Virus record (IMG/VR): IMGVR_UViG_3300032053_000146 | Coordinates: 1 to 45,522 of that record | DNA length: 45,522 nucleotides | Strand: one strand, 5' to 3' | Source of the DNA: a virus | In this document: piece after piece, positions 625-39,109 of the stretch | How the letters are laid out: each line of letters opens with the position of its first letter | Numbering within the stretch: the first letter of the stretch is position 1 | Translations under genes and position numbers: made by a program | The notes under the pieces: generated by a model | Told to the model about the DNA's origin: nothing | The model's database searches: none | The model's input: the letters and a program-made list of their open reading frames with translations, nothing else

Positions 625-960
625 ATGAAAACGAAAACCGAACCGAATGCGTACAATTTGATCGCCGACATCATTAGCGATTACGGCGTGGAATTGCTCC
701 GCAAGCGTGACGCCTTGAAGGCGGAGCTTAAGCTGGTCGATGACGAAGTGCGCATGTTGGTGGACAACGGCGTCAAAAAATATGGCGTCGGCGTGCACGC
801 GGTCAATGCTCATTTGAATGTTGAGCTTAAAGAATCGGAGCGTGCATCGGTGTCGTGGAAAGCGTTAGCGTACGCGGTAGCGACCGAGGACATCATAAAC
901 GACCAATTGCCGATCTTCACCGAAGCTTACAAAATCCGGTCGGCCAAGGTGGTGCAATGA
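625..960 (+). CDS. Hypothetical protein, N-terminal helical segment
   Basis: A 111-residue protein with a strong ribosome-binding site (GAGAGGAG) before ATG 625. Residues 15-50 are rich in charged residues and Leu and look helical or coiled-coil. The stop overlaps the start of the next gene (ATGA at 957-960), indicating translational coupling. Family not recognised. Confidence 0.8.
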   Translation: MKTKTEPNAYNLIADIISDYGVELLRKRDALKAELKLVDDEVRMLVDNGVKKYGVGVHAVNAHLNVELKESERASVSWKALAYAVATEDIINDQLPIFTEAYKIRSAKVVQ

Positions 961-1541
961 AAACCAAGATTTGCTCAAACCCTGAATGTGCGCACAAGGG
1001 CGTGGCACAACCGCTCGAACGTTTCAGCAAAAACGGGCGTGGCGGTAAGCATACGCAATGTAAGGCGTGCGACAATAAGCGTATGCGCGAATATCACCGA
1101 CAACCTGTTGTGAAGGAACGTAGCCGACAACGACACCGCGCACGTCGTCAGCAGCTAAAGCGTGCTGCAATGGAACGCCTTGGTGGCGCACACTGCGTGT
1201 TATGTGGATGCATCGAGGAAATCTTTTTGACGATAGACCACGCAAACGGTGACGGTGCGGCACATCGGAAACAGTTAAGCGGCAGGCACGACAATAAAGG
1301 TGGTGGTACCCGCATACATTGTTGGATTTTGAAGGCGTCTGATGTTGAACTTGCTGCGGCGAATTTGCGCGTGCTGTGTGCTCAATGCAACGCCGCCCTG
1401 CAATTCCACACCGAAGCCGAACTGGAAGCTGCTATCGCACGCAACAACGCCCGTATTGCCCTAAAATCGGGTTTTATCCGCACACACCGAAATCACCTAT
1501 ATTCAGAGCGCCAAATTGGCGTAGAAGGAACACTGCGATGA
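957..1541 (+). CDS. HNH-nuclease-like protein with N-terminal zinc finger
   Basis: A 194-residue protein. The N-terminal 45 residues have a CSNPEC...CKAC zinc-finger pattern with an FSKNGR element, common in phage HNH and endonuclease VII-like proteins. The C-terminal half has CVLC, then LTIDHANGDGAAHRK (the His-containing HNH core), then LCAQCN, the pattern of a common phage HNH-like family. It is probably a DNA nickase or endonuclease, either free-standing and homing-like or active in recombination. The start at 957 overlaps the previous stop (ATGA); a longer start at 855 would run through the upstream gene and is rejected. Activity is not shown. Confidence 0.75.
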   Translation: MKTKICSNPECAHKGVAQPLERFSKNGRGGKHTQCKACDNKRMREYHRQPVVKERSRQRHRARRQQLKRAAMERLGGAHCVLCGCIEEIFLTIDHANGDGAAHRKQLSGRHDNKGGGTRIHCWILKASDVELAAANLRVLCAQCNAALQFHTEAELEAAIARNNARIALKSGFIRTHRNHLYSERQIGVEGTLR

Positions 1542-6866: not shown

Positions 6867-7934
6867 TTACATCCTCACTACTGAATATTCGCTGGCATTG
6901 CACGGATGCATTCCCGTACCCACTAAGGTAACTTTCACGCCACTTATTACCTGTATGTGGTGAATGGAACCCCATAATGGCATCGTAAAATCAGGGGTTG
7001 TGATGCCTCGTATAGATGGAGCAATATAGTCGGCAAAAGTCAGAGCGATTTCGGTCGGGCCGTGCAATCGCACACATTGTTTAAGCAACGCATCGTCCCA
7101 TTCGGCTATACGTCGTATTTTGTGCGTGACGGTGGTATATTCCTTTAAATCCGGTACGCCGATACGCTCTCCTAAGGTTTTCCACGTGATTTCATTAGCC
7201 AAAGGGCCACTAGCACCTGCAACGCGTATTGGGTAAGAACGGAAAACGGCAATAATGCGATTTACCGCACGCATTGGTATTCCTACATCGGCTGCAAGTT
7301 GTGCCGGGCCGGGGTCGGTGCTGGTGCAATACGGCCATTCACCATGAATAAGTGATAGACCTTGACCTTGCGCTCCTTCAAGCATAATGCGGCTACCTGC
7401 ACCAATTGCGCGCTCCAAGTAAAGGGTCGTATTTATTCCAGCAAAACGGGCAAACCGTTCATCATCTCGACATAAATCACGGAATAAACGGAATTTATTC
7501 GGGTCGCGTGCGATACGGGCCGCACGCGCCGGGCCGACGCCTTCTCCGGTAGAACCGATTCGCTTGTGCATTTCCCCGTTAACACCGCCTTCTGCAGCGT
7601 GGAAATTCGTATCCAGCACGCCACATTTTTCGTCGATGTAGAGGCGGTCATATATGGTGGGGTCTACCGTTGCAACCGCTTCTATTTCCTCTTGGAGCAA
7701 TTGTGGATTTATGAGACCACCACGTCCAATCATTATGCGGGCGTTCGGGTTTATCCATCCGACCGGAAGCGTCTGCATTTTCCATGCTCTGCCATTGTGT
7801 ACAAAGGTATGCCCGGCATTGGGTGCGCCTACTCGTACATGTATGGCATAATCATTTGCCAATGCTGCAACAATAACGCCTTTCCCCTCACTGCCGTATT
7901 GCCCGCCAAATACAATATCTACTGCCCTACTCAT
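6867..7934 (-). CDS. purZ: PurZ, 2-aminodeoxyadenylosuccinate synthetase
   Basis: 355 residues, adenylosuccinate-synthetase fold. PurZ joins aspartate to dGMP, giving the precursor of dZMP (2-aminoadenine nucleotide). The P-loop reads GGQYGSEGKG at residues 10-19: Ser15 stands where PurA has the catalytic Asp (GDEGKGK), the known hallmark of PurZ. GSTGEGVGPARAARIARD and LEGAQGQG with CTSTDPGP match the IMP/dGMP-binding and catalytic regions of the family. It is shorter than bacterial PurA (about 430 residues), as phage PurZ proteins are. AAGAAAGGG precedes ATG 7934. Neighbours are nucleotide-pool enzymes and a family A polymerase. A host-type PurA is unlikely because of Ser15 and the context. 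Confidence 0.93.
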   Translation of the reverse strand: MSRAVDIVFGGQYGSEGKGVIVAALANDYAIHVRVGAPNAGHTFVHNGRAWKMQTLPVGWINPNARIMIGRGGLINPQLLQEEIEAVATVDPTIYDRLYIDEKCGVLDTNFHAAEGGVNGEMHKRIGSTGEGVGPARAARIARDPNKFRLFRDLCRDDERFARFAGINTTLYLERAIGAGSRIMLEGAQGQGLSLIHGEWPYCTSTDPGPAQLAADVGIPMRAVNRIIAVFRSYPIRVAGASGPLANEITWKTLGERIGVPDLKEYTTVTHKIRRIAEWDDALLKQCVRLHGPTEIALTFADYIAPSIRGITTPDFTMPLWGSIHHIQVISGVKVTLVGTGMHPCNASEYSVVRM

Positions 7935-7939
7935 ATTTA

Positions 7940-8461
7940 TTACCCTTTCTTGTCCGATTGAATGTATATGATTTTTGGGCTGTTATATATCTCGTGCTCC
8001 AAAGTTTCCCCGTACCAATGTCCAATATGTGCGACTACAGATTCAAGTATTGAGTCGAACGTTTGACTTTTCTCCTCGTCGATGAAGAAAATATGCGTGC
8101 ACAACGAACGTGTCCAAAAATGGTCAGCAAGATAGCGTTCATTGGTGATTAGAATAACTGGAATACGACGCTCCCATGCATATATAATTTCACACGGTGT
8201 ACCAAAACTCGTATCTCCACATTTCATCATGACAGCCAGCACCACATGAGCGCGTTCAATATCCTGCAAATCACGCACCACAACTTCATTAGGAGATAAA
8301 TCACTCCACCCGGACGCCTGATATTTTCCACGTAAAGGGTCGAGTGCGTGTAAACCATGCGCTCGCAATTTTGCAGCAATTTTGGTGCGATATTCAGTCG
8401 CATCATGGCCGATTTTGATTTTACCGGCCAAATAAATATAACGTTTATCACGTAATGCCAT
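7940..8461 (-). CDS. Nucleoside 2-deoxyribosyltransferase / dNMP N-hydrolase-like enzyme
   Basis: 173 residues. The pattern fits the nucleoside deoxyribosyltransferase superfamily: YLAG (10-13), ALDPLRGKY (39-47), RDLQDIERAHVVL (63-75) with Asp64/Asp67, and SFGTPCEIIYAWERRIPVI (85-103), where Glu91 aligns with the catalytic Glu. Members swap bases on deoxyribose or hydrolyse dNMPs (Rcl/DNPH1 type). It lies 5 bases upstream of purZ in the same operon, with GAAAGG before the start. In this context it could remove dA or dAMP, or salvage deoxyribose, for Z-DNA synthesis; substrate and reaction type are inference. Confidence 0.78.
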   Translation of the reverse strand: MALRDKRYIYLAGKIKIGHDATEYRTKIAAKLRAHGLHALDPLRGKYQASGWSDLSPNEVVVRDLQDIERAHVVLAVMMKCGDTSFGTPCEIIYAWERRIPVILITNERYLADHFWTRSLCTHIFFIDEEKSQTFDSILESVVAHIGHWYGETLEHEIYNSPKIIYIQSDKKG

Positions 8462-9019
8462 TTATTCGCCCTTTCTGATATTCGCATCATATGGCGTGAA
8501 AAATTCCGTCACCGCTTCGGGCGTAATATCGGTCGGTCTATCGTCTGTACCGGTATGATGGAGTGAATACTCCAACAAAAACAATAGATTGGCTATAGCG
8601 TGCGCCAAATGCGGTAGGCCAGATTCATCGTCATTCTCTTCTCGCATTACCCATTTGACGAAATGACGCATGGCGGAACCGATACAGCGCGACCAACTAA
8701 AACCGGCTTCCCAATTGTGGTCACCATAATGGTACGCACCGAATGTCATTACCTTAGCCACAAGAGTAAGAGAAGCCCAGGGTAACAAATCAAAGCGTAC
8801 TTTTTGTAGAGCCGAGCGTATGGACACACCGTCTGTTTTATCGCAACCCGGCTCTCCGATATCTGCGAATGTTTGCCAAGATTCAATTTGAATTGTTGGC
8901 GTGTTGAGTTCGCACAACTTAGCATAACCGGCTTGGTACCACTCATTTTGTCCGGTGCCTTCTACCTCAAAACTATGTTCTGTGCGGTCTGTTAAACGAA
9001 AAAGAATGCGTGTTTTCAT
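8462..9019 (-). CDS. dATP/dGTP diphosphohydrolase N-terminal-domain-like protein
   Basis: 185 residues. Residues about 68-150 (RFDLLPWASLTLVAKVMTFG, YHYGDHNWEAGFSWSR, MRHFVKW, SGLPHLAHAIANLLFLLEY) match the conserved pattern of the phage domain annotated as dATP/dGTP diphosphohydrolase N-terminal (DUF5664-like). In Z-phages, MazZ-type enzymes make dGMP from dGTP, the PurZ substrate. The first 65 residues form an extra, unrecognised domain. ATG 9019 follows GAAAGG. It is one base from the next gene and 12 bases after the polymerase gene. Activity is inferred from family and context. Confidence 0.75.
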   Translation of the reverse strand: MKTRILFRLTDRTEHSFEVEGTGQNEWYQAGYAKLCELNTPTIQIESWQTFADIGEPGCDKTDGVSIRSALQKVRFDLLPWASLTLVAKVMTFGAYHYGDHNWEAGFSWSRCIGSAMRHFVKWVMREENDDESGLPHLAHAIANLLFLLEYSLHHTGTDDRPTDITPEAVTEFFTPYDANIRKGE

Positions 9020-9030
9020 GGTTGACCTTT

Positions 9031-11115
9031 CTATTTCGCATTTGCCCAATTTTTACCACAACCGATATCGACCGTCAAAGGCACCCAACCTGGCCCAATT
9101 TCCGGAAATTCCATATTTTCACGAATTAGCGCATGTGCTTGTTCGGTGATTTTAGCCGGGTGTTCAAAGACGATTTCATCATGCACCGCTAAGAGCATTT
9201 TGATTGGAAGTTTGCTCTTTACAATAGCTGCATATACGTTAATCAAGGCGATTTTCATAATGTCGGCTGCCGTGCCTTGAATGATGTGTGATAAAGCGGC
9301 ACGTTCCCCTTCACGAATTACCGCTTTGTATGACACGTCCCATAACTCCTCTTCGGTAAATCGGTGTGCCCAAGGTTTTCTGCCTAAATAATCAACAAAC
9401 TGTGCGGTTGTTGCCGGAGTCGGTTTTTGAATCTCCGGTAGCATGCGACGACGCCCAAAATATGTGTCCATATACCCTTGAACGCGCCCTTGACGATAAA
9501 TCTCCTGAATCCATTTATATACGCCGTTGTATGTTGTGTTCCATGTTTTGATTAGCCGTATAGCTTCCTCCACCGATGCGATTGCTCCTCGGTTTACCAC
9601 ATAAAGCCTTTCTCCACCGACGCCGGTCAATACGCTAAAATTGATTCGTTTGGCGACACGGCGTTGTACTTCCGTCGGGGTATCGGTCTTGAATATATCG
9701 CGTGCGGTTGTGACGTGCACATCGAATTTGGGGTCGTAATAGGCATCAATCCATTTAGGTTCTCTTGATAATGATGCAACAACCCGCAATTCCATTTGCG
9801 AATAATCCGCCGAAGTCAAGACATTTCCTTTTGCCGGAACAAACACTTCGCGCACGTGCACCACATCTGTGTCCTCGTCATCCTTACTAATACCTTGCAT
9901 GTTGGGATTAGTGCAGCTAAAACGTCCGGACACCACACCAACATGCCATAATGATGGATGAATGCGACCGGTCAACGGATTGACCATTGTAGGTAATTTT
10001 TGCGTGTAAATAGTGCGCCGGGTATTCGTTTTTGCGTATCGCATAATAGCCGGTACAATTGGATGCACATGTGCAATTTCAGATAATGCATCTTGGTCGG
10101 TGCTGTAACCGCTTTTTACCTTACGGGTCGGCGGTAAACCCATTACATCAAATAACAATATCTGTTTTTGACGAAACGAACCTAAATTCAGTCCGGTCTT
10201 TTTCGTCAGTCGCCGCAATTCCGGGTGTGCGAATACGGTAGCACCGGTCTTGTCGTCCACAACGGTGTCACATGCTTCCATTGCATATATTTCCACATCT
10301 TTACGACATTTTTCGGCTTCAGTCTCAAGTAGCGTATCTAATTCTGCACACCGCTTTGCATCAAAACCGACGCCATTTTGCGCCATTTCGATAACAGGGT
10401 CAATAACCCATGTATCTATGTCCCATATTCCCTTGGCGTTTTGTATGGCTATTTGTATACGCTTATCTCGCCATATTTGCATTGTGATATCGGCATCCTG
10501 ACAACCATATATCCGCTGTTGGTCGGGCGTCAACAAGGTAAAATCAATTTCACCCTCTGTGATTTTCTCCTTGTTCAAATTGGATGCGATAATATCCTTG
10601 AGTGTGATGGTCGGTAAACTTAACAGCAATCTGGCTTGGTCTTTTAATCCTCGATTCTCCTTGTATTCAGTGGTATCCCGGTGGAAACACGCAACCATCA
10701 CATCACGCACGTCATCAATTTTAACGGGTAAACCGTAGCGACGCAGCATTTGCATATCGAACACAGCATTGAACATAAGAATAAGAGCGCCTTTGGTAAG
10801 TGTGCGTAACAAGCGCAGTTGCGGGTCATTAGCTATTGGTACCCAATATGCCTCGTTTGGCTTAAAGCTGAATGAATACCCCAAGAGTGAACAAGTTAAG
10901 GTATCGACACCGGTTGTTTCCGTATCGACCGCAATTTCCACAAGACCGCCAACAGCTTCGTAACGTGGCCACACAAAAAGCATAAACTCCTTGACGTCCA
11001 CTGTGCGATATGTGCTCATGGCGTCCCATTGTTTCAGCATTTCTTCTGCGTAATTAAAAGTGCGTTCCTTTTGCATACCGATCGTATTCACATTTTTTTC
11101 GTCCTCGTCCACTTT
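9031..11115 (-). CDS. dpoZ: Family A DNA polymerase with 3'-5' exonuclease (DpoZ-like)
   Basis: About 694 residues. The exonuclease domain has DTETTG (motif I), FNAVFDMQ (II) and YGCQDAD (III). The polymerase domain has motif A DYSQMELR, motif B RRVAKRINFSVLTGVG and motif C VHDEIVFEHP, so both active sites look intact. In motif B the O-helix Tyr (YG in Pol I) is Thr (LTG), an unusual change near the nascent base pair. Purine-Z phages carry such polymerases (DpoZ) near purZ. I prefer GTG 11115, which has AAAGGA 6 bases upstream; ATG 11148 lacks a good site. No 5'-3' exonuclease domain is present. Confidence 0.9.
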   Translation of the reverse strand, partial: KVDEDEKNVNTIGMQKERTFNYAEEMLKQWDAMSTYRTVDVKEFMLFVWPRYEAVGGLVEIAVDTETTGVDTLTCSLLGYSFSFKPNEAYWVPIANDPQLRLLRTLTKGALILMFNAVFDMQMLRRYGLPVKIDDVRDVMVACFHRDTTEYKENRGLKDQARLLLSLPTITLKDIIASNLNKEKITEGEIDFTLLTPDQQRIYGCQDADITMQIWRDKRIQIAIQNAKGIWDIDTWVIDPVIEMAQNGVGFDAKRCAELDTLLETEAEKCRKDVEIYAMEACDTVVDDKTGATVFAHPELRRLTKKTGLNLGSFRQKQILLFDVMGLPPTRKVKSGYSTDQDALSEIAHVHPIVPAIMRYAKTNTRRTIYTQKLPTMVNPLTGRIHPSLWHVGVVSGRFSCTNPNMQGISKDDEDTDVVHVREVFVPAKGNVLTSADYSQMELRVVASLSREPKWIDAYYDPKFDVHVTTARDIFKTDTPTEVQRRVAKRINFSVLTGVGGERLYVVNRGAIASVEEAIRLIKTWNTTYNGVYKWIQEIYRQGRVQGYMDTYFGRRRMLPEIQKPTPATTAQFVDYLGRKPWAHRFTEEELWDVSYKAVIREGERAALSHIIQGTAADIMKIALINVYAAIVKSKLPIKMLLAVHDEIVFEHPAKITEQAHALIRENMEFPEIGPGWVPLTVDIGCGKNWANAK

Positions 11116-11125
11116 TGTTCCTTTC

Positions 11126-11605
11126 TTATCTGTTGCTGTGTATATCATTAAGGTCAGGAAACCATCTATCCATATCCCAATTGATGCGATTGCCGACCTT
11201 GATTTGCATTATTTCGTATTCACTAAAAACATCGGCCAAGTTCACACGTTTCATGTTTTGTGTGCGTTCCACCCATACTTCCACCGGAATAAAATAAAGA
11301 ATTTTATCCTGTGGTGACCGGTAATGAATAATCGCTAAAAACCCATCACCACACGCAGTATTGATTGCCCGAAGGGTATTAATTTGTCCCGGTCGCACGC
11401 GGTCAGTAGCAAATGCCCCCGACCGGTGGAGTTTCCATTCAATACCGAGTAATCGACCAGCCACGCAAAGTATGGTATCGACCGCACGTTCGTTGCTGTA
11501 GTTATGGCCGGGGCGAAAATAATCGGGCACCTTAATCCACCAAAAATACTTAAACTGCCGTTGCCAATTTTTTAATATGCCTCTTGTGGCGTCTGTTTCG
11601 TTCAT
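11126..11605 (-). CDS. PD-(D/E)xK nuclease, possibly Holliday-junction resolvase or VRR-NUC type
   Basis: 159 residues. AVDTILCVAGRLLGIEWKLH carries the D...ExK metal-binding core of PD-(D/E)xK nucleases, preceded by a Trp/aromatic-rich segment, followed by RPGQINTLRAI and a beta strand (GFLAIIHY), as in VRR-NUC and RecU-like enzymes. It probably resolves branched phage DNA or acts in recombination. The start overlaps the previous stop (ATGA) with AAGGA upstream, and it lies between the MazG-like and polymerase genes. Confidence 0.75.
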   Translation of the reverse strand: MNETDATRGILKNWQRQFKYFWWIKVPDYFRPGHNYSNERAVDTILCVAGRLLGIEWKLHRSGAFATDRVRPGQINTLRAINTACGDGFLAIIHYRSPQDKILYFIPVEVWVERTQNMKRVNLADVFSEYEIMQIKVGNRINWDMDRWFPDLNDIHSNR

Positions 11606-11853
11606 TGTGTTTCCTTGGGAAGAACCAAGAGAAATCTCATAGCCATTGCTGCTGTGTGAATGGCTTCCGTACGAAGCACGTTAATATCATGGTGCCGATT
11701 ATTTTCGTAATCATTGCATGATTGCACCAATTCTCCGCATTCCTCTTGCACAATAGCAGCAGCATGTATGTAATCGGTAGGCCAGCCGGGAAATTTCATT
11801 TCAGCCCTGCGCACTTCTGTGCATATCGCAGCAAATACTTCTGATACCGTCAT
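11602..11853 (-). CDS. MazG-like NTP pyrophosphatase domain protein
   Basis: 83 residues. FPGWPTDYIHAAAIVQEECG with E37-E38-x-x-E41 is the first metal-binding helix of MazG-type all-alpha pyrophosphatases, and TEAIHTAAMAMRFL is the second helix, where the usual ExxD has become E-A-I-H. Small phage proteins of this type hydrolyse dNTPs to dNMPs. In Z-phage S-2L a MazG-like MazZ supplies dGMP for PurZ, so this is a candidate MazZ. Start ATG 11853 (GGAG upstream) rather than TTG 11871. Substrate is inferred. Confidence 0.75.
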   Translation of the reverse strand: MTVSEVFAAICTEVRRAEMKFPGWPTDYIHAAAIVQEECGELVQSCNDYENNRHHDINVLRTEAIHTAAMAMRFLLVLPKETQ

Positions 11854-12161
11854 TTTAATATCTCCGTCCAAGCATTCTTGGCTAGTGTTTTAACATTAGC
11901 GACAAAACCAACATCAAAGCAACATTCGCTGTGTGGTGTACGACGGGCAATACCCAATTCCACAAGAATCTCCCATAAAACGGATTGCAAACGTATAACT
12001 TCGTCCAAAAGTTCCTCTTTGGTGCGTTTAGCCAAATCATCTTTGGCAGGTAGTTCATGTTCACCAACGCCTCGTAAAGGCAAATTTGTGGTTCTTGCTT
12101 GTCTGTGCGTTGTTTTTGCTGCAGGTGCTACACCAAAACCTTTATTAATCTTATTTGCCAT
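11850..12161 (-). CDS. Hypothetical protein, coiled-coil middle
   Basis: 103 residues. The N-terminal 45 residues are basic and low-complexity; residues 45-75 form a Leu-rich helix (KEELLDEVIRLQSVLWEILVE). It overlaps the genes on both sides by a few bases, so it is clearly part of the operon. It may be a small partner of the adjacent MazG-like protein, but no family is recognised. Confidence 0.7.
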   Translation of the reverse strand: MANKINKGFGVAPAAKTTHRQARTTNLPLRGVGEHELPAKDDLAKRTKEELLDEVIRLQSVLWEILVELGIARRTPHSECCFDVGFVANVKTLAKNAWTEILK

Positions 12162-13158
12162 TTTTCACCCATAAACCATAACCGGGAAAAGATGTTTTTA
12201 TTGTATCGCTTTGGCCTGTGTAAAACAACTCCATTACACGCCAATATTCTTTCACACGTTGCTCCAAAGTGTGAAAGAATAATATGTCTTTTTGTCCTTG
12301 TCTTGCAATCTGTTCCCTTTCTACTTCATGCATCAAATAATAATCAATTGCCGTGCGTAAACCATTAAAGGAATCATCATAAGTGACGCAATGCTCGCCC
12401 TCTTGCCACATCAAATTAAGATGCTGCACCTTGTGATTAATGAAAAATGCTCCGCTGCCCATTGCGTTGTATGCACGGTTGCTGGTGACGAATGCTCCGG
12501 GGTTGATAAACAATGCACGTTGAATATTGAATGCGATACGACTTTGCGCATAAGCTTCGGCCATGCGCCACCCACGTATTTCATTGAGCATACCGGGCAC
12601 GTGAATAACGAAATTGCAATTATAGTGTTTATTTAATTCATCAAGCCAACGTTTTCTGTGGTCGTCCACGCTTCCGATAAACACAATGTCGGATATTGGT
12701 TTAATAGGGTCGAGCCGTTTAGGCAATCCGATTGTCTCACCGGAATTATTCTTGGAACAGAAAATATGGTCAAAATACTGCGGCATCCATAGCACACAAG
12801 GAGCAAGTTCACGGTACCGGGTCGCCGTCTCCATTATGGAAAAGATTAATATATCCGCCACATTATTCAATTGTGTACGCCACATGCGGTCGCGTCTACA
12901 TTCCGTCATATCGGGGTACCACAAAACAAGTTTTGCTCCGGCTTCTCGCATTTTACGGTAATAAGGCACACAATGAGCGCGTGCGACATCGGAGAAAACG
13001 AAATCCGGCTTATACTCCTGAAATGCTGCTAAGGCATTTTCCGGATGTTCTCTGCTTCCGGTAACCGCCACATTCAAGCCTTGACGCTGCATTTCTTCGG
13101 CAATAAACACACCGGCAAAACGTCTCTCAAAACCGCAAGACCATATCAACACTCTCAT
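12151..13158 (-). CDS. Glycosyltransferase, GT-B fold, CgeB/family 4-like
   Basis: 335 residues. MRVLIWSCGF starts an N-terminal Rossmann domain. The C-terminal half has SDIVFIGSVDDHRKRWLDEL, an R-x-AFNIQRA segment, AYNAMGSGAFFINHKV and a GEHCVTYD element, matching the glycosyl transferase group 1 / CgeB-like pattern (sugar-nucleotide binding around the E/D-rich loop). It probably transfers a sugar to phage DNA, a virion protein or a host surface glycan; nothing here decides which. ATG 13158 has GGAG upstream and begins the fold; an in-frame ATG at 13218 would add 20 residues. Confidence 0.75.
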   Translation of the reverse strand: MRVLIWSCGFERRFAGVFIAEEMQRQGLNVAVTGSREHPENALAAFQEYKPDFVFSDVARAHCVPYYRKMREAGAKLVLWYPDMTECRRDRMWRTQLNNVADILIFSIMETATRYRELAPCVLWMPQYFDHIFCSKNNSGETIGLPKRLDPIKPISDIVFIGSVDDHRKRWLDELNKHYNCNFVIHVPGMLNEIRGWRMAEAYAQSRIAFNIQRALFINPGAFVTSNRAYNAMGSGAFFINHKVQHLNLMWQEGEHCVTYDDSFNGLRTAIDYYLMHEVEREQIARQGQKDILFFHTLEQRVKEYWRVMELFYTGQSDTIKTSFPGYGLWVKNGK

Positions 13159-13220
13159 GGGTCGCTCCACACTATCGTAAACCTTACGCCAACCTTGCCG
13201 TCTGTTGTGATGCCACATAT

Positions 13221-13496
13221 TTATTTACCACAGCACCGTTTGTGTTTTAAACCGCTATGACAGGGGCACAACTCATTGCGTCCGATTTTGCGAAATGGGC
13301 GACGATATGTGCCACGCATTTGTGAATCCCACAATAACCGGACGAGTCGCGCTATTTTACGCAATCTCTTTGGTGACGCCGGTATTTGAGTTTCTTGCGT
13401 TTGTGCCGCTACGCGTCGTTTAAACCAGCGTGCGAATAACCATTGCCAAAAAAGCGCAATGAGCGGTATTCGGGTAAACCAGTTAAATAATTTCAC
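13221..13496 (-). CDS. SEC-C zinc-motif protein with N-terminal membrane helix
   Basis: 91 residues. The C-terminus [20 protein letters not shown] is a complete SEC-C zinc motif, as at the end of SecA. The N-terminal 25 residues are hydrophobic and aromatic (a likely membrane helix), joined by a basic stretch. GTG 13496 overlaps the previous stop (GTGA), with AGGAG 9 bases upstream. It lies between two glycosyltransferase genes, so it might tether that machinery at the membrane; this is inference. Confidence 0.8.
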
Positions 13497-14374
13497 GTGG
13501 TCACTCCTAATATATGAATAGTTGCTTTGAGTATTTCATCCATCGACGGCATCCACCGCATACGTTTTTTCCAATAAGCATCAGTCGGTGACGGTAAAAC
13601 ATGCACGTTTACGTCAAACGGGTTCCAGAATTTTACCATGCGAACAGCATGTTCTGAACAAGTCTGCCATGCTACTTGTGGTAATTCACATAATGTAGCA
13701 AAATGAATCGGGCCACATTGTGGGCCGACGATTACGCGTGCTCTGGACATTATATATGCCAAATGGAAAAGCGGAATATCGCGTAAATCAGCGGTTCCAT
13801 CAATGTGTGCGGCTGAATCGCTTCTACCAACGCAACCAATCCGTATATTTTCGTCCGTTTGTTGATGCAATTTTCGTACGAATTCCTCAGCGTGCTGTAT
13901 TGACCAATTACGAAAGCCAGTATTGCATTTATCCGTATTGCGCACAATCAATAGTGCGTCAACGGGGTCATATTCCACAAAAGGCACAAACATTCGGAAT
14001 TGTCCACGTTCGAACATTGTCCGATACGATATGAAATGATGTTCTGTTTTTATACCATCAACCCACCACCGACGTGGGCCAGATGTACCACAAAACCAGC
14101 GTATGTTGGAGTCGGGTGGCATTGTTAACCGTTCGTAGTCGGCTTTATGTACTGCGTAATTTTTCCACATATCGGTCTCTTCACCTTCTGGAATATAAGA
14201 CCGAATATGCTGTGCGAAATCGGTATAAAGAAAACCATGACCGGGCCGACAAATAACCGTCACATCGTGGTCTCGAAAATCACGTGCGACGGTAGCGCGT
14301 ATCCAAGCTTGCCAGCAAAAAAGCTCCCACCCAAATTCACCAACCCAAGGGCCAAAAATAATGCGCTTAAGCAT
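13493..14374 (-). CDS. Glycosyltransferase, family 9 (heptosyltransferase)-like
   Basis: 293 residues. The C-terminal half shows [26 protein letters not shown], then [27 protein letters not shown], the GT-B nucleotide-sugar pocket of family 9 and related enzymes. The N-terminus ([15 protein letters not shown]) resembles a class found in gene clusters for surface sugars. ATG 14374 has AAGG upstream. It is read with the SEC-C and CgeB-like genes and so belongs to a small glycosylation module within the replication operon. Acceptor unknown. Confidence 0.75.
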
Positions 14375-36623: not shown

Positions 36624-38405
36624 TTATTTAGTATGTATCATTGTTTCAATATTGTTTGTCAGACAATTTGTTATGCCGTCCATTGTCGCCACAATAAAAC
36701 TCGGTAGTATTAGATGGACGTTATCTTGCGTGTGTACGGCAGCAAATAGAGAGCGAATCTCTCTGATTAGACGCGGCAAATGCCAATGGTATTTATCAGC
36801 GTTCTCCAAAAGTAATTGCGTTTGCACCAACATCTGGTCAACTATTGATTCCAGCGTAATTTGTGTGGCCTGCATAACACCTTGAAAAGCCGCATGCTTT
36901 CCATCAAAAATACGCCCAACCGCATTAAATTTGGTTACTCCACGTTCTACAATAATTTGCTGCATTACGGGCATTACGTTTTGCCGTAAAGCGCGATTCA
37001 ATCCCAGCACATCAAATACTTTGTGGGCTTGATGCTCCGGGTCGCACAAGACCGACATGCAACGACCGTGTGCTGTAAGCGTTTGCACTTTATCAACTGT
37101 CAACTCGCAATATTGCCGCATAGTAGCATAAAGCGCATTTTCAACGTTCTTTTCCTCTTCCTCCGTAGGTTGAACTTCCTTGTTAACAGGCGGAGCGTTA
37201 ATCTCTTCCGGTGCAGCATCCTCTGAAATGTTCAGCTGTTCTCGCACGTAAGCTGCGCTAACGATACCCTCTTTTTTGAGTTTGACAAGACGCTCAACTT
37301 GCTCGTTCGTATCGCCTTTCAAAGCCGGAACACTGCTCAAATCAAATTTGAGACAAATATCCGGGCCGAAAAAAGGCCACAAAAGCTGTTTATTAATCGC
37401 ATCCTCAATGACTTTAAGGATTGGCTTAACGGTATTAAGCCAGAAATCCTTGTCCTGTGCGGCTGCATTCGCATAATTAGCGTATTCCATAACGCCACCA
37501 CGAAAAGGTGGTAGACCATATACGCCAAAAATGCGCTCACGTATAGCCGACAGCAACGTTTTAAAAGCGATATCTTTGTGTTTTTGGTCGGGGTGCTCGA
37601 ATTTTCCGCCATAGCGGTTGATGAATATACGGAAAGCGTTTTCCTGATTGTCAACATCGGCGTTCATTGCATCCAAAATTTGCTGGTGTTGGTCTTCCGT
37701 CAAATCATGGTCGGGCGTGAACATCAAATTGATGGTTGCGCCGTTACGGAAGAAACCGGAGTTGAAACGTGCAATATACCAGTCCATCATAATTTCTTCA
37801 CGCACCGTGTTCACACGACCGATCCCCCAAAACGGGTCTCCTGCCGACATATCACGAACGTGCACAATACGATTACGGGGGTAAGTGCGTTCGGCTACGG
37901 TGTGCGCACCGAATTTATAAATATTGCGGTTGGTACTGATTTCCACCGTGCGTGGGTCACGCGGCCAGATTTCGATTCCTGCATATGGGCCGGTGTTTGC
38001 TTCAACGGTAAGAATCGCATTGCCGTCGTTCAGGAATGCTTTAACAATATAACTTACGATGTCCGACCAAGAATGTTCCATGTTTGGCGTACGGATAATT
38101 TCGTTAGCCGGATGGTCGATGTCTTCAACTTCACGTTCCACGCCGCCTACCCTCTGTATTTCTACGATGTGGACGGGTAAACTTTTCACGGCGTCATCAA
38201 TCGCACGTGTAGCGATGTATACGTTGGGATTGACCTTATCGGCGTCTATGTCGTACCGCGTCTTGGGGTCACGTTGCGCCCAGTTCAACGAACCATATTT
38301 GCGCGTAATTTCAACTTGTTTTGCCCGGTCGCGCAAATCCACACGAAATTGGGTTTTTTGCTTTTTGCCGAACATGCGCAGCATCCAATCAAATATTCTC
38401 AGCAT
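36624..38405 (-). CDS. Portal protein (HK97 type)
   Basis: 593 residues from ATG 38405 (GAAAGG upstream; an in-frame TTG lies 7 codons earlier). RAIDDAVKSLPVHIVEIQR, HPANEIIRTPNMEHSWSDIV, GNAILTVEANTGPYAGIEIW and FFRNGATINLMFTPDHDLTE with ERIFGVYGLPPF are HK97-like portal features. The C-terminal 180 residues are helical and unusually long. It overlaps the FkbM gene end (ATGCTGA). It forms the DNA entry ring. Confidence 0.9.
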   Translation of the reverse strand: MLRIFDWMLRMFGKKQKTQFRVDLRDRAKQVEITRKYGSLNWAQRDPKTRYDIDADKVNPNVYIATRAIDDAVKSLPVHIVEIQRVGGVEREVEDIDHPANEIIRTPNMEHSWSDIVSYIVKAFLNDGNAILTVEANTGPYAGIEIWPRDPRTVEISTNRNIYKFGAHTVAERTYPRNRIVHVRDMSAGDPFWGIGRVNTVREEIMMDWYIARFNSGFFRNGATINLMFTPDHDLTEDQHQQILDAMNADVDNQENAFRIFINRYGGKFEHPDQKHKDIAFKTLLSAIRERIFGVYGLPPFRGGVMEYANYANAAAQDKDFWLNTVKPILKVIEDAINKQLLWPFFGPDICLKFDLSSVPALKGDTNEQVERLVKLKKEGIVSAAYVREQLNISEDAAPEEINAPPVNKEVQPTEEEEKNVENALYATMRQYCELTVDKVQTLTAHGRCMSVLCDPEHQAHKVFDVLGLNRALRQNVMPVMQQIIVERGVTKFNAVGRIFDGKHAAFQGVMQATQITLESIVDQMLVQTQLLLENADKYHWHLPRLIREIRSLFAAVHTQDNVHLILPSFIVATMDGITNCLTNNIETMIHTK

Positions 38406-39109
38406 ATATCGCCTTTCACGAAACAAAGCGTCTTTACCTGTGGTTCTCGCATTTTAGCATATCGCATGCGGTCTTCCTTACGAGCAAAGCGAAACCCACT
38501 ACGTTGTATAAAAGACAACAGTTGTTCTGTCGTGTAGCCGAACCGCCTTTGCCATCCAATGCTGAATTCGACCACTAGTATTAAATTATCGTTCGCACCC
38601 AATAATTGCCGCAATCCATTAAGTGCCAATAATTCCGCACCTTCTATATCCAACTTAATGCCGTCAATACGCGTTTTGTTACCCGTAATCATATCGTCTA
38701 ATGCGATTGCTTTTACCTTGGTGACTGTCTCTCCTTCTCGGTCGTCCACGCTGACGTAATTCCCCGCACTCATCGCAGTGCTTTTAAGGAATAAATCCTG
38801 CGTACGGTTCCACAAAGCAAATTGTATTGGTGTGATTCCACCTTGCGCCGCAGCGTTCTGTTGTAATATCTTAAAAGTGCTGCCATTCGGTTCAAAGGCA
38901 AATATATTGTGGACAGTTCGACGTTTGGTATAATGTTGTGCAATATTCAAACTCCACAATCCCACGTGCGCTCCACCGTCAATAAATACGCCGGTTACTT
39001 TACCCGCTTTGATTAACCGGTCTAAGTATTGATGGACGCATTTTCTCGCGTTATATTCGTAGTGTGGAATATTACAAGCGGTACATTTCTCGTCCGTACA
39101 TTTAATCAC
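38399..39109 (-). CDS. FkbM-family methyltransferase
   Basis: 236 residues. GVFIDGGAHVGLWSLNIAQH is the SAM-binding loop, IFAFEPNGSTFKILQQNAAA the acidic loop, and IDGIKLDIEGAELLALNGLR the FkbM signature. The N-terminus has CTDEKCTAC, a likely metal-binding extra. It is a class I SAM methyltransferase, usually acting on sugar hydroxyls. The GTG start overlaps the terminase stop (GTGA), an unusual place for this family. Confidence 0.85.
   Translation of the reverse strand: MIKCTDEKCTACNIPHYEYNARKCVHQYLDRLIKAGKVTGVFIDGGAHVGLWSLNIAQHYTKRRTVHNIFAFEPNGSTFKILQQNAAAQGGITPIQFALWNRTQDLFLKSTAMSAGNYVSVDDREGETVTKVKAIALDDMITGNKTRIDGIKLDIEGAELLALNGLRQLLGANDNLILVVEFSIGWQRRFGYTTEQLLSFIQRSGFRFARKEDRMRYAKMREPQVKTLCFVKGDIC

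What the first reader, a model, noticed from the sequence alone, without database searches (positions are those of the whole stretch)
6867..11853. Z-genome (2-aminoadenine DNA) biosynthesis and polymerase cassette
PurZ, a deoxyribosyltransferase-like enzyme, a dATP/dGTP-diphosphohydrolase-like protein, a family A polymerase, a nuclease and a MazG-like protein are transcribed together. In known phages PurZ plus MazZ-type enzyme plus DpoZ makes and uses dZTP so that A is replaced by 2-aminoadenine. The gene set here suggests the same for this phage, with a partly different enzyme complement.
Basis: partly seen in the sequence, partly recalled or inferred. Interest (0 to 1): 0.93.

Follow-up and report, generated by a model that had tools for sequence, protein, structure and literature searches.

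The report
Phage cassette for 2-aminoadenine DNA
This uncultured phage carries a compact gene set that very probably makes a chemically altered DNA in which adenine is replaced by 2-aminoadenine; it has a deep, unstudied version of the key enzyme, and its DNA polymerase and one nucleotide enzyme differ from those of all the known phages of this kind compared here.

Summary
In detail: on the minus strand, window 6867-11853 holds purZ, an NDT-family gene, a DUF5664 dNTP-diphosphohydrolase gene, polA, a RecU-like nuclease gene and a MazG-like gene, overlapping or nearly so. A sister phage (L100, 59.9 kb) keeps the order GT, small ORF, nuclease, polA, DUF5664, NDT, purZ, primase. The PurZ has the diagnostic Ser for Asp13 and a GTP-type Asp, and falls in a supported uncultured phage clade (100/99) apart from PurA, PurZ, PurZ0 and a cellular paralogue. 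Most relatives carry a family A polymerase, Dut, DUF5664 or NDT beside purZ, so 2-aminoadenine (Z) metabolism is the best reading. The 'same system' claim needs correction. The polymerase is not a recognised DpoZ (148 and 59 bits against cut-offs 500 and 350; O-helix gate Thr, Asn in the sister). The NDT is not a DmtZ (essential Asp12 is Lys, Asn77 is Asp, other branch of the tree). DutZ and DatZ are absent, and no MazZ was found. PurZ itself is below NCBI's PurZ cut-off (237 against 300), as are its kin tested. Verdict: new variant of a known kind; probably Z-DNA, not proven. The catalytic Ser alone is no proof: many bacterial chromosomes encode a kinase/PurZ-like fusion with the same Ser.

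The parts
6867..7934 (-). purZ-type succino-amino-deoxyadenylate synthetase, 355 aa
   Evidence: PF00709 3.1e-51, phrog_1211 3.2e-71; motif GGQYGSEGKG with Ser15 at PurA Asp13; LTFADY Asp302 at the GTP-base position; own phage clade 100/99
7940..8461 (-). NDT-superfamily dNMP N-glycosidase / deoxyribose-phosphate transferase, 173 aa
   Evidence: PF05014 1.9e-10; predicted fold pLDDT 78, Z 14-16 to NDT, DNPH1 and MilB structures; Tyr10, Lys16, Pro42, Asp64, Ser85, Glu91
8462..9019 (-). DUF5664 dATP/dGTP diphosphohydrolase family; ATG at 9019 preferred over the TTG at 9049
   Evidence: PF18909 1.7e-29, phrog_801 1.2e-36; relative of the biochemically active Wayne DUF5664 (PMC12884076); AGAAAGG upstream of the ATG
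9031..11148 (-). family A DNA polymerase with 3'-5' exonuclease, 705 aa
   Evidence: PF00476 1.2e-90; exo motifs DTETTG, NAVFD, YGCQDAD; O-helix INFSVLTG with Thr508 at the Klenow Tyr766 position
11126..11605 (-). RecU-like Holliday-junction resolvase, 159 aa
   Evidence: phrog_843 1.7e-8, weak RecU
11602..11853 (-). MazG-like all-alpha protein, 83 aa (ATG at 11853)
   Evidence: EECGELVQ...EAIHTAAMA motif; homologous domain fused to DmtZ in the purZ phage L077; fold model inconclusive
11850..12161 (-). small conserved protein upstream in the same run, 103 aa
   Evidence: conserved in the sister phage L100
4473..6614 (-). primase/RecA-like ATPase downstream of purZ
   Evidence: PF08708 2.1e-7, PF13481 8.5e-7; same position in L100

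Best explanation
The operon makes dZTP and clears its competitor, so that the phage copies its genome with 2-aminoadenine in place of adenine. Inferred route: DUF5664 (perhaps helped by the MazG-like protein) hydrolyses dGTP and dATP to dGMP and dAMP; PurZ joins dGMP and aspartate, probably with GTP as phosphate donor, to succino-amino-dAMP; host PurB and kinases finish dZTP. The NDT-family enzyme removes dAMP by hydrolysis to adenine, and may move its deoxyribose-phosphate onto free Z base as DmtZ does. The PolA then copies DNA from a pool poor in dATP and rich in dZTP; whether it also prefers dZTP itself is unknown. Shown here: gene content, order, conserved catalytic residues, clades, conserved linkage. 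Inferred: every reaction and the Z content of the DNA.
For: Ser at the PurA Asp13 position in all 89 PurZ-type rows aligned (window, phages, IMG/VR) and in neither of the two PurA controls; PMC12884076 reports Ser in all 147 phage PurZ sequences. Asp302 at the guanine-binding position as in PurA/PurZ0, whereas phiVC8 and SH-Ab 15497 have Asn and S-2L has Gln. PurZ in a supported phage clade. Linkage of purZ with PolA, Dut, DUF5664 or NDT recurs in most of about 90 IMG/VR relatives. DUF5664 of phage Wayne hydrolyses dATP and dGTP (PMC12884076). The sister phage L100 keeps polA-DUF5664-NDT-purZ, with NDT (65%) and PurZ (61%) the best conserved of the genes compared. No dUTPase or HD-type DatZ in the window, no dUTPase in all of L100, so DUF5664 and NDT are the main dATP-removing candidates found. 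S-2L shows that dATP removal can do without a Z-selective polymerase (PMC8065100, PMC8342488).
Against: PurZ scores below NCBI's PurZ cut-off (237 against 300) and slightly better on the archaeal-type PurA model (249, itself under its cut-off 368), while Wayne, Sapo and phiVC8 pass. Ser is not exclusive to Z phages. DUF5664 and the MazG-like domain also occur in many phages not found by the PurZ search. The polymerase is not a DpoZ. Lys at the DmtZ Asp12 position leaves the NDT's base preference open; a dGMP hydrolase would work against PurZ. No chemistry was measured.
Confidence: 0.7

Rival explanations
1. The PurZ-like enzyme is a phage PurA (IMP to adenylosuccinate) that boosts ordinary adenine nucleotide supply; the DNA has normal A.
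For: Scores slightly better on the archaeal PurA model NF003295 (249 bits) than on NF038379 PurZ (237), and below both cut-offs.
Against: The catalytic Asp of PurA is replaced by Ser, invariant in its clade; neighbours belong to families that can destroy dATP (DUF5664, NDT), the opposite of boosting A.
Confidence: 0.08
2. Partial or regulated replacement: dZTP is made and dATP lowered, but the polymerase has no Z preference, so the DNA holds a mixture of A and Z.
For: Polymerase outside both DpoZ clades and below both DpoZ cut-offs; no DatZ; O-helix residue not the Phe shared by studied DpoZ.
Against: S-2L has an unselective PrimPol and still replaces A completely, because dATP is removed (PMC8065100).
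Confidence: 0.17
3. The PurZ-like enzyme makes another nucleotide, for example a different dG-derived base or a signalling nucleotide, as may be the case for the cellular kinase/PurZ-like fusions with the same Ser.
For: A large cellular family with the same Ser and GTP-type Asp exists, function not found.
Against: Window PurZ lacks the kinase domain, lies outside that clade (100/99), and sits in a replication operon of the kind seen in Z phages.
Confidence: 0.05

Closest known systems
PurZ0 phages Wayne (Arthrobacter) and Ghobes/Sapo (Gordonia): PurZ0, DmtZ, DutZ, DUF5664-1, DpoZ (PMC12884076)
   Same: Ser-type PurZ with GTP-type Asp; DUF5664 and an NDT-family gene near purZ; PolA with exonuclease
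   Different: Own PurZ clade; no DutZ; NDT lacks DmtZ Asp12 and Asn77; PolA is another lineage with Thr at the gate; no phage PurB recognised
phiVC8 and SH-Ab 15497: PurZ, DatZ, MazZ/DUF550, DpoZ
   Same: purZ near polA; SH-Ab MazZ carries a DUF5664 domain
   Different: No DatZ, no DUF550/MazZ found; Asp in place of Asn at the nucleotide base; polymerase lacks the DpoZ signature
Cyanophage S-2L: PurZ, MazZ, DatZ, PrimPol
   Same: Possible logic: dATP removal may replace polymerase selectivity
   Different: Other enzymes for dATP removal and another polymerase family
DNPH1/Rcl and MilB, dNMP/NMP N-glycosidases (PMC10603095, PMC3834327)
   Same: Fold; Tyr/Asp/Glu triad, basic residue at DNPH1 Arg30, Ser at phosphate-binding Ser98
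   Different: Keeps the transferase-type Pro (Pro42) and lacks the Glu55-His56 pair of DNPH1
Sister phage IMGVR_UViG_3300037560_000117 (L100)
   Same: Same gene order from GT to primase, same NDT type, no dut, gate residue also non-aromatic
   Different: Asn, not Thr, at the gate; no MazG-like gene found; Cys-rich NDT tail

Membership tests
PurZ / PurZ0 | Ser in place of PurA catalytic Asp13 | tested here: met
   Ser15; but also present in cellular paralogues
PurZ / PurZ0 | Groups with phage PurZ, not with host PurA | tested here: met
   Separate from E. coli and Pyrococcus PurA (100/100); own clade 100/99 beside PurZ0 and PurZ; only two PurA rows were available
PurZ / PurZ0 | NCBIfam NF038379 score of at least 300 | tested here: not met
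   237.3 bits; L100 217, L010 236; Wayne 367, Sapo 318, phiVC8 397
PurZ0 | GTP-type Asp at the donor-base position | tested here: met
   Asp302 in LTFADY
PurZ0 | Clade with Wayne/Ghobes PurZ0 proper | tested here: not met
   PurZ0 rows form their own 100/100 clade without the window
PurZ / PurZ0 | Makes succino-amino-dAMP from dGMP and aspartate | not testable with these tools
   needs enzyme assay
DpoZ | NCBIfam DpoZ_1 or DpoZ_2 cut-off | tested here: not met
   147.9 of 500 and 59.5 of 350; Wayne 1144.7, Sapo 418
DpoZ | Phe in place of the O-helix Tyr, shared by both DpoZ subfamilies (PMC8599892) | tested here: not met
   Thr508; L100 Asn. Most purZ-linked PolAs here have Tyr, so this mark is not general
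DpoZ | Belongs to one of the two DpoZ clades | tested here: not met
   Window+L100 form a separate branch (approximate tree, deep support moderate)
DpoZ | Prefers dZTP over dATP | not testable with these tools
   needs assay
DmtZ | NDT fold with catalytic Tyr and Glu | tested here: met
   Tyr10, Glu91; predicted fold
DmtZ | Asp12, essential for activity in Ghobes DmtZ | tested here: not met
   Lys16; 69 of 83 aligned rows have Asp
DmtZ | Asn77 | tested here: not met
   Asp in window and L100
DmtZ | Transferase-type Pro57 | tested here: met
   Pro42
DmtZ | Groups with the DmtZ of purZ phages | tested here: not met
   Window+L100 with Moorella phage NDT (92), outside the 70-row set (81); few columns
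DUF5664 diphosphohydrolase | PF18909 domain above cut-off | tested here: met
   102 bits against 27
MazZ (S-2L) / DUF550 | MazZ or DUF550 domain | tested here: inconclusive
   No DUF550 hit for the cassette proteins scanned and no MazZ profile hit, but that profile found only one of the two phages with a known MazZ, S-2L being missed; the MazG-like protein did not align to S-2L MazZ
DatZ | HD-domain dATP triphosphohydrolase gene | tested here: not met
   No PF01966 in the window, no DatZ profile hit
DutZ | dUTPase-family gene | tested here: not met
   No PF00692 in the window or L100; present in 9 of 14 relatives searched

The most novel reading that the evidence does not exclude
A Z-DNA system assembled separately from the two known ones: a third PurZ clade, a polymerase recruited apart from both DpoZ groups and selecting (or tolerating) Z with a non-aromatic O-helix residue (Thr/Asn), and a non-DmtZ NDT enzyme that took over dAMP removal and possibly dZMP synthesis, with DUF5664 in place of DutZ/DatZ/MazZ.
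Probability: 0.4. Interest if true: 0.72.

Novelty: new variant of a known kind. Interest (0 to 1): 0.57.

Why it matters
If true, adenine replacement by Z was put together at least once more from other parts around PurZ. It would give a polymerase with no DpoZ signature in which to ask what makes a polymerase choose Z over A, a question PMC8599892 left open, and a second NDT-family route for clearing dAMP. It also warns that the Ser motif alone should not be used to call Z genomes.

Tried and rejected
Single-sequence IMG/VR scan with PurZ found no relative; alignment-based scans did. Genome scan with the NDT alignment found no cellular relative. MazG-like: structure model (pLDDT 72) matches only three-helix bundles, no hhalign match to S-2L MazZ, PDB profile hits to MazG proteins only at E 0.16-0.33: called MazG-like on motif alone. 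First thought that the NDT was a DmtZ orthologue: a DmtZ profile finds it (4e-11), but finds the NDT of a Moorella phage that lacks PurZ about as well, and the key residues and tree say no. First thought that Phe at the polymerase gate marks Z polymerases: among 48 aligned PolAs, nearly all from purZ loci, 33 have Tyr, so it is not a good test. DNPH1-like hydrolase as a full label rejected: Pro42 is transferase-like and Glu55-His56 is missing. The genome search with a cellular centre was not possible.
Full report
What the window is. The window is a whole IMG/VR virus record of 45,522 bases with terminase, portal, major head and tape-measure genes, so a tailed phage; host unknown, no tRNA genes.

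Observation. The minus strand carries, in order of transcription, a glycosyltransferase (12151-13218), a small ORF (11850-12161), a MazG-like gene, a RecU-like nuclease, polA, DUF5664, an NDT-family gene, purZ, a small ORF and a primase. From the glycosyltransferase to purZ, neighbours overlap by up to 23 bases or lie at most 5 apart.

PurZ. PF00709 3.1e-51 and phrog_1211 3.2e-71. The GGQYGSEGKG motif has Ser15 where E. coli PurA has catalytic Asp13; all 89 PurZ-type rows aligned share it, both PurA controls have Asp. PMC12884076 reports Ser in all 147 phage PurZ sequences. Asp302 in LTFADY aligns with the Asp of PurA (TKLD in E. coli; its role in binding the guanine of GTP is from general knowledge); phiVC8, SH-Ab 15497 and the Bacillus phage have Asn, S-2L has Gln. 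PurZ0 uses GTP and PurZ uses ATP (general knowledge of the PurZ0 work; PMC12884076 cites it, though one sentence of that paper states the preferences the other way round), so GTP is predicted here. In a careful tree the window and sister L100 pair (100/99) inside a 13-row uncultured clade (100/99), apart from PurZ0 (100/100), PurZ (100/96) and a cellular clade (100/99); how these clades join is not resolved.

Limits of the PurZ call. NCBI's PurZ model gives 237 bits against a cut-off of 300, and 217 and 236 for kin L100 and L010, whereas Wayne, Sapo and phiVC8 reach 367, 318 and 397. A scan of bacterial and archaeal genomes found 166 relatives; of the 80 kept, 79 could be read at both columns and all have Ser and Asp there; the scan pattern itself asked for the Ser motif, so this shows that such genes exist, not how common they are. 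Most are about 540 aa; the examined one is an N-terminal P-loop kinase fused to the PurZ-like domain and followed by a DUF7002 gene. So Ser alone does not show Z metabolism; the operon context carries the argument.

Context. Of about 90 IMG/VR relatives, most have PolA, Dut, NDT or DUF5664 beside purZ. The nearest clade usually shows PolA-purZ-Dut-DUF5664 or PolA-purZ-Dut-NDT. The window and L100 instead have polA-DUF5664-NDT-purZ and no dUTPase. L100 keeps the block from the glycosyltransferase to the primase at 36-65% identity, with NDT (65%) and PurZ (61%) the best conserved. No HD-type DatZ was found.

NDT. The model (pLDDT 78) matches NDT, DNPH1 and MilB structures (Foldseek 1.8e-6; Z up to 16.5, rmsd 2.1 over 129 residues). 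Residues: Tyr10 and Glu91 match the catalytic Tyr and Glu; Lys16 stands where DmtZ has Asp12 (D12A and D12R lose activity on dAMP, PMC12884076) and DNPH1 has Arg30; Asp64 where DmtZ has Asn77 and DNPH1 has Asp80; Ser85 aligns with DNPH1 Ser98, which binds the 5'-phosphate; Pro42 matches the transferase-type Pro57 (PMC10603095). In the tree, window and L100 join the NDT of a Moorella phage (92) that has no PurA/PurZ gene, outside the 70-row set with the DmtZ of purZ phages (81); only 145 columns, so moderate evidence. Best reading: a dNMP-acting glycosidase, perhaps also a transferase, recruited separately; base preference open.

DUF5664. PF18909 at 102 bits, aligned with Wayne DUF5664, which hydrolyses dATP, dGTP and dUTP in vitro (PMC12884076). 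The family occurs in 937 phage records, whereas the PurZ search found 217, so it is not specific to Z phages.

MazG-like. Motif EExxE and EAIxxAAMA. In L077, a purZ phage, the same domain is fused to a DmtZ domain, where relatives have DmtZ-DutZ. This hints that it can serve the dNTP-to-dNMP step. It also occurs in phages unrelated to this finding, and L100 seems to lack it (no positive control).

Polymerase. Exonuclease and polymerase motifs are intact. It fails both DpoZ models, one of which Wayne and Sapo pass. In an approximate tree, window and L100 (99) lie apart from the Wayne-like group, the phiVC8-like group and the PolAs of the nearest PurZ kin. At Klenow Tyr766, where both studied DpoZ groups have Phe (PMC8599892), the window has Thr508 and L100 has Asn; among 70 PolAs 52 have Tyr and 13 Phe. 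This is a sharp, testable oddity, but since most purZ-linked PolAs have Tyr it does not by itself speak for Z selectivity.

Mechanism and verdict. Most likely dGTP and dATP are cut to monophosphates, dGMP feeds PurZ, dAMP is destroyed, host enzymes finish dZTP, and the polymerase copies a dATP-poor pool. S-2L is a precedent for replacement by dATP removal without a selective polymerase (PMC8065100, PMC8342488). Shown: genes, residues, clades, linkage. Inferred: all activities and the DNA chemistry. The system is filed as a new variant of PurZ-based Z-DNA synthesis; DpoZ and DmtZ membership were tested and not met, and PurZ membership is met by residue and tree but not by NCBI's curated score.

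Noticed in passing
L189:7446-9722, L165:7425-9730, L163:7431-9757: Bacterial chromosomes and a plasmid encode a ~540-aa protein: P-loop kinase fused to a PurZ-like domain with the same catalytic Ser and GTP-type Asp, followed by a DUF7002 gene. About 71 of 80 genome hits fall in this clade; the kinase part weakly hits the PADLOC model VakA (8.4e-6). Function not found; could be a defence or nucleotide-modifying operon.
   Followed up: partly
L077:11259-12092: In this purZ phage a DmtZ domain is fused to a MazG-like domain in place of the usual DmtZ-DutZ fusion; no dut was found near it.
   Followed up: partly
L100:8949-9614: The sister phage's NDT has a cysteine-rich C-terminal tail that the window's NDT lacks.
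   Followed up: no
L100:6003-8069: Sister polymerase has Asn at the O-helix gate (ANFSILNG), so this position is non-aromatic in both phages but not conserved between them.
   Followed up: partly
window 12151-13218 and 13493-14374: Two glycosyltransferase-like genes in the same run as the Z cassette, one 54% identical in L100; possibly glycosylation of a surface or of DNA.
   Followed up: no
window 38399-39109: A methyltransferase-like gene (phrog_8156, 3.6e-22) sits next to the terminase large subunit gene.
   Followed up: no
window 855-1541: Endonuclease VII-like gene on the plus strand, against the main direction (phrog_1035, 1.2e-10).
   Followed up: no
L147:7986-9496: A contig binned as Bacteroidetes carries a window-clade purZ (49% identity) with a PolA-length gene upstream and a Dut-like gene after; a faint host hint only.
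   Followed up: no
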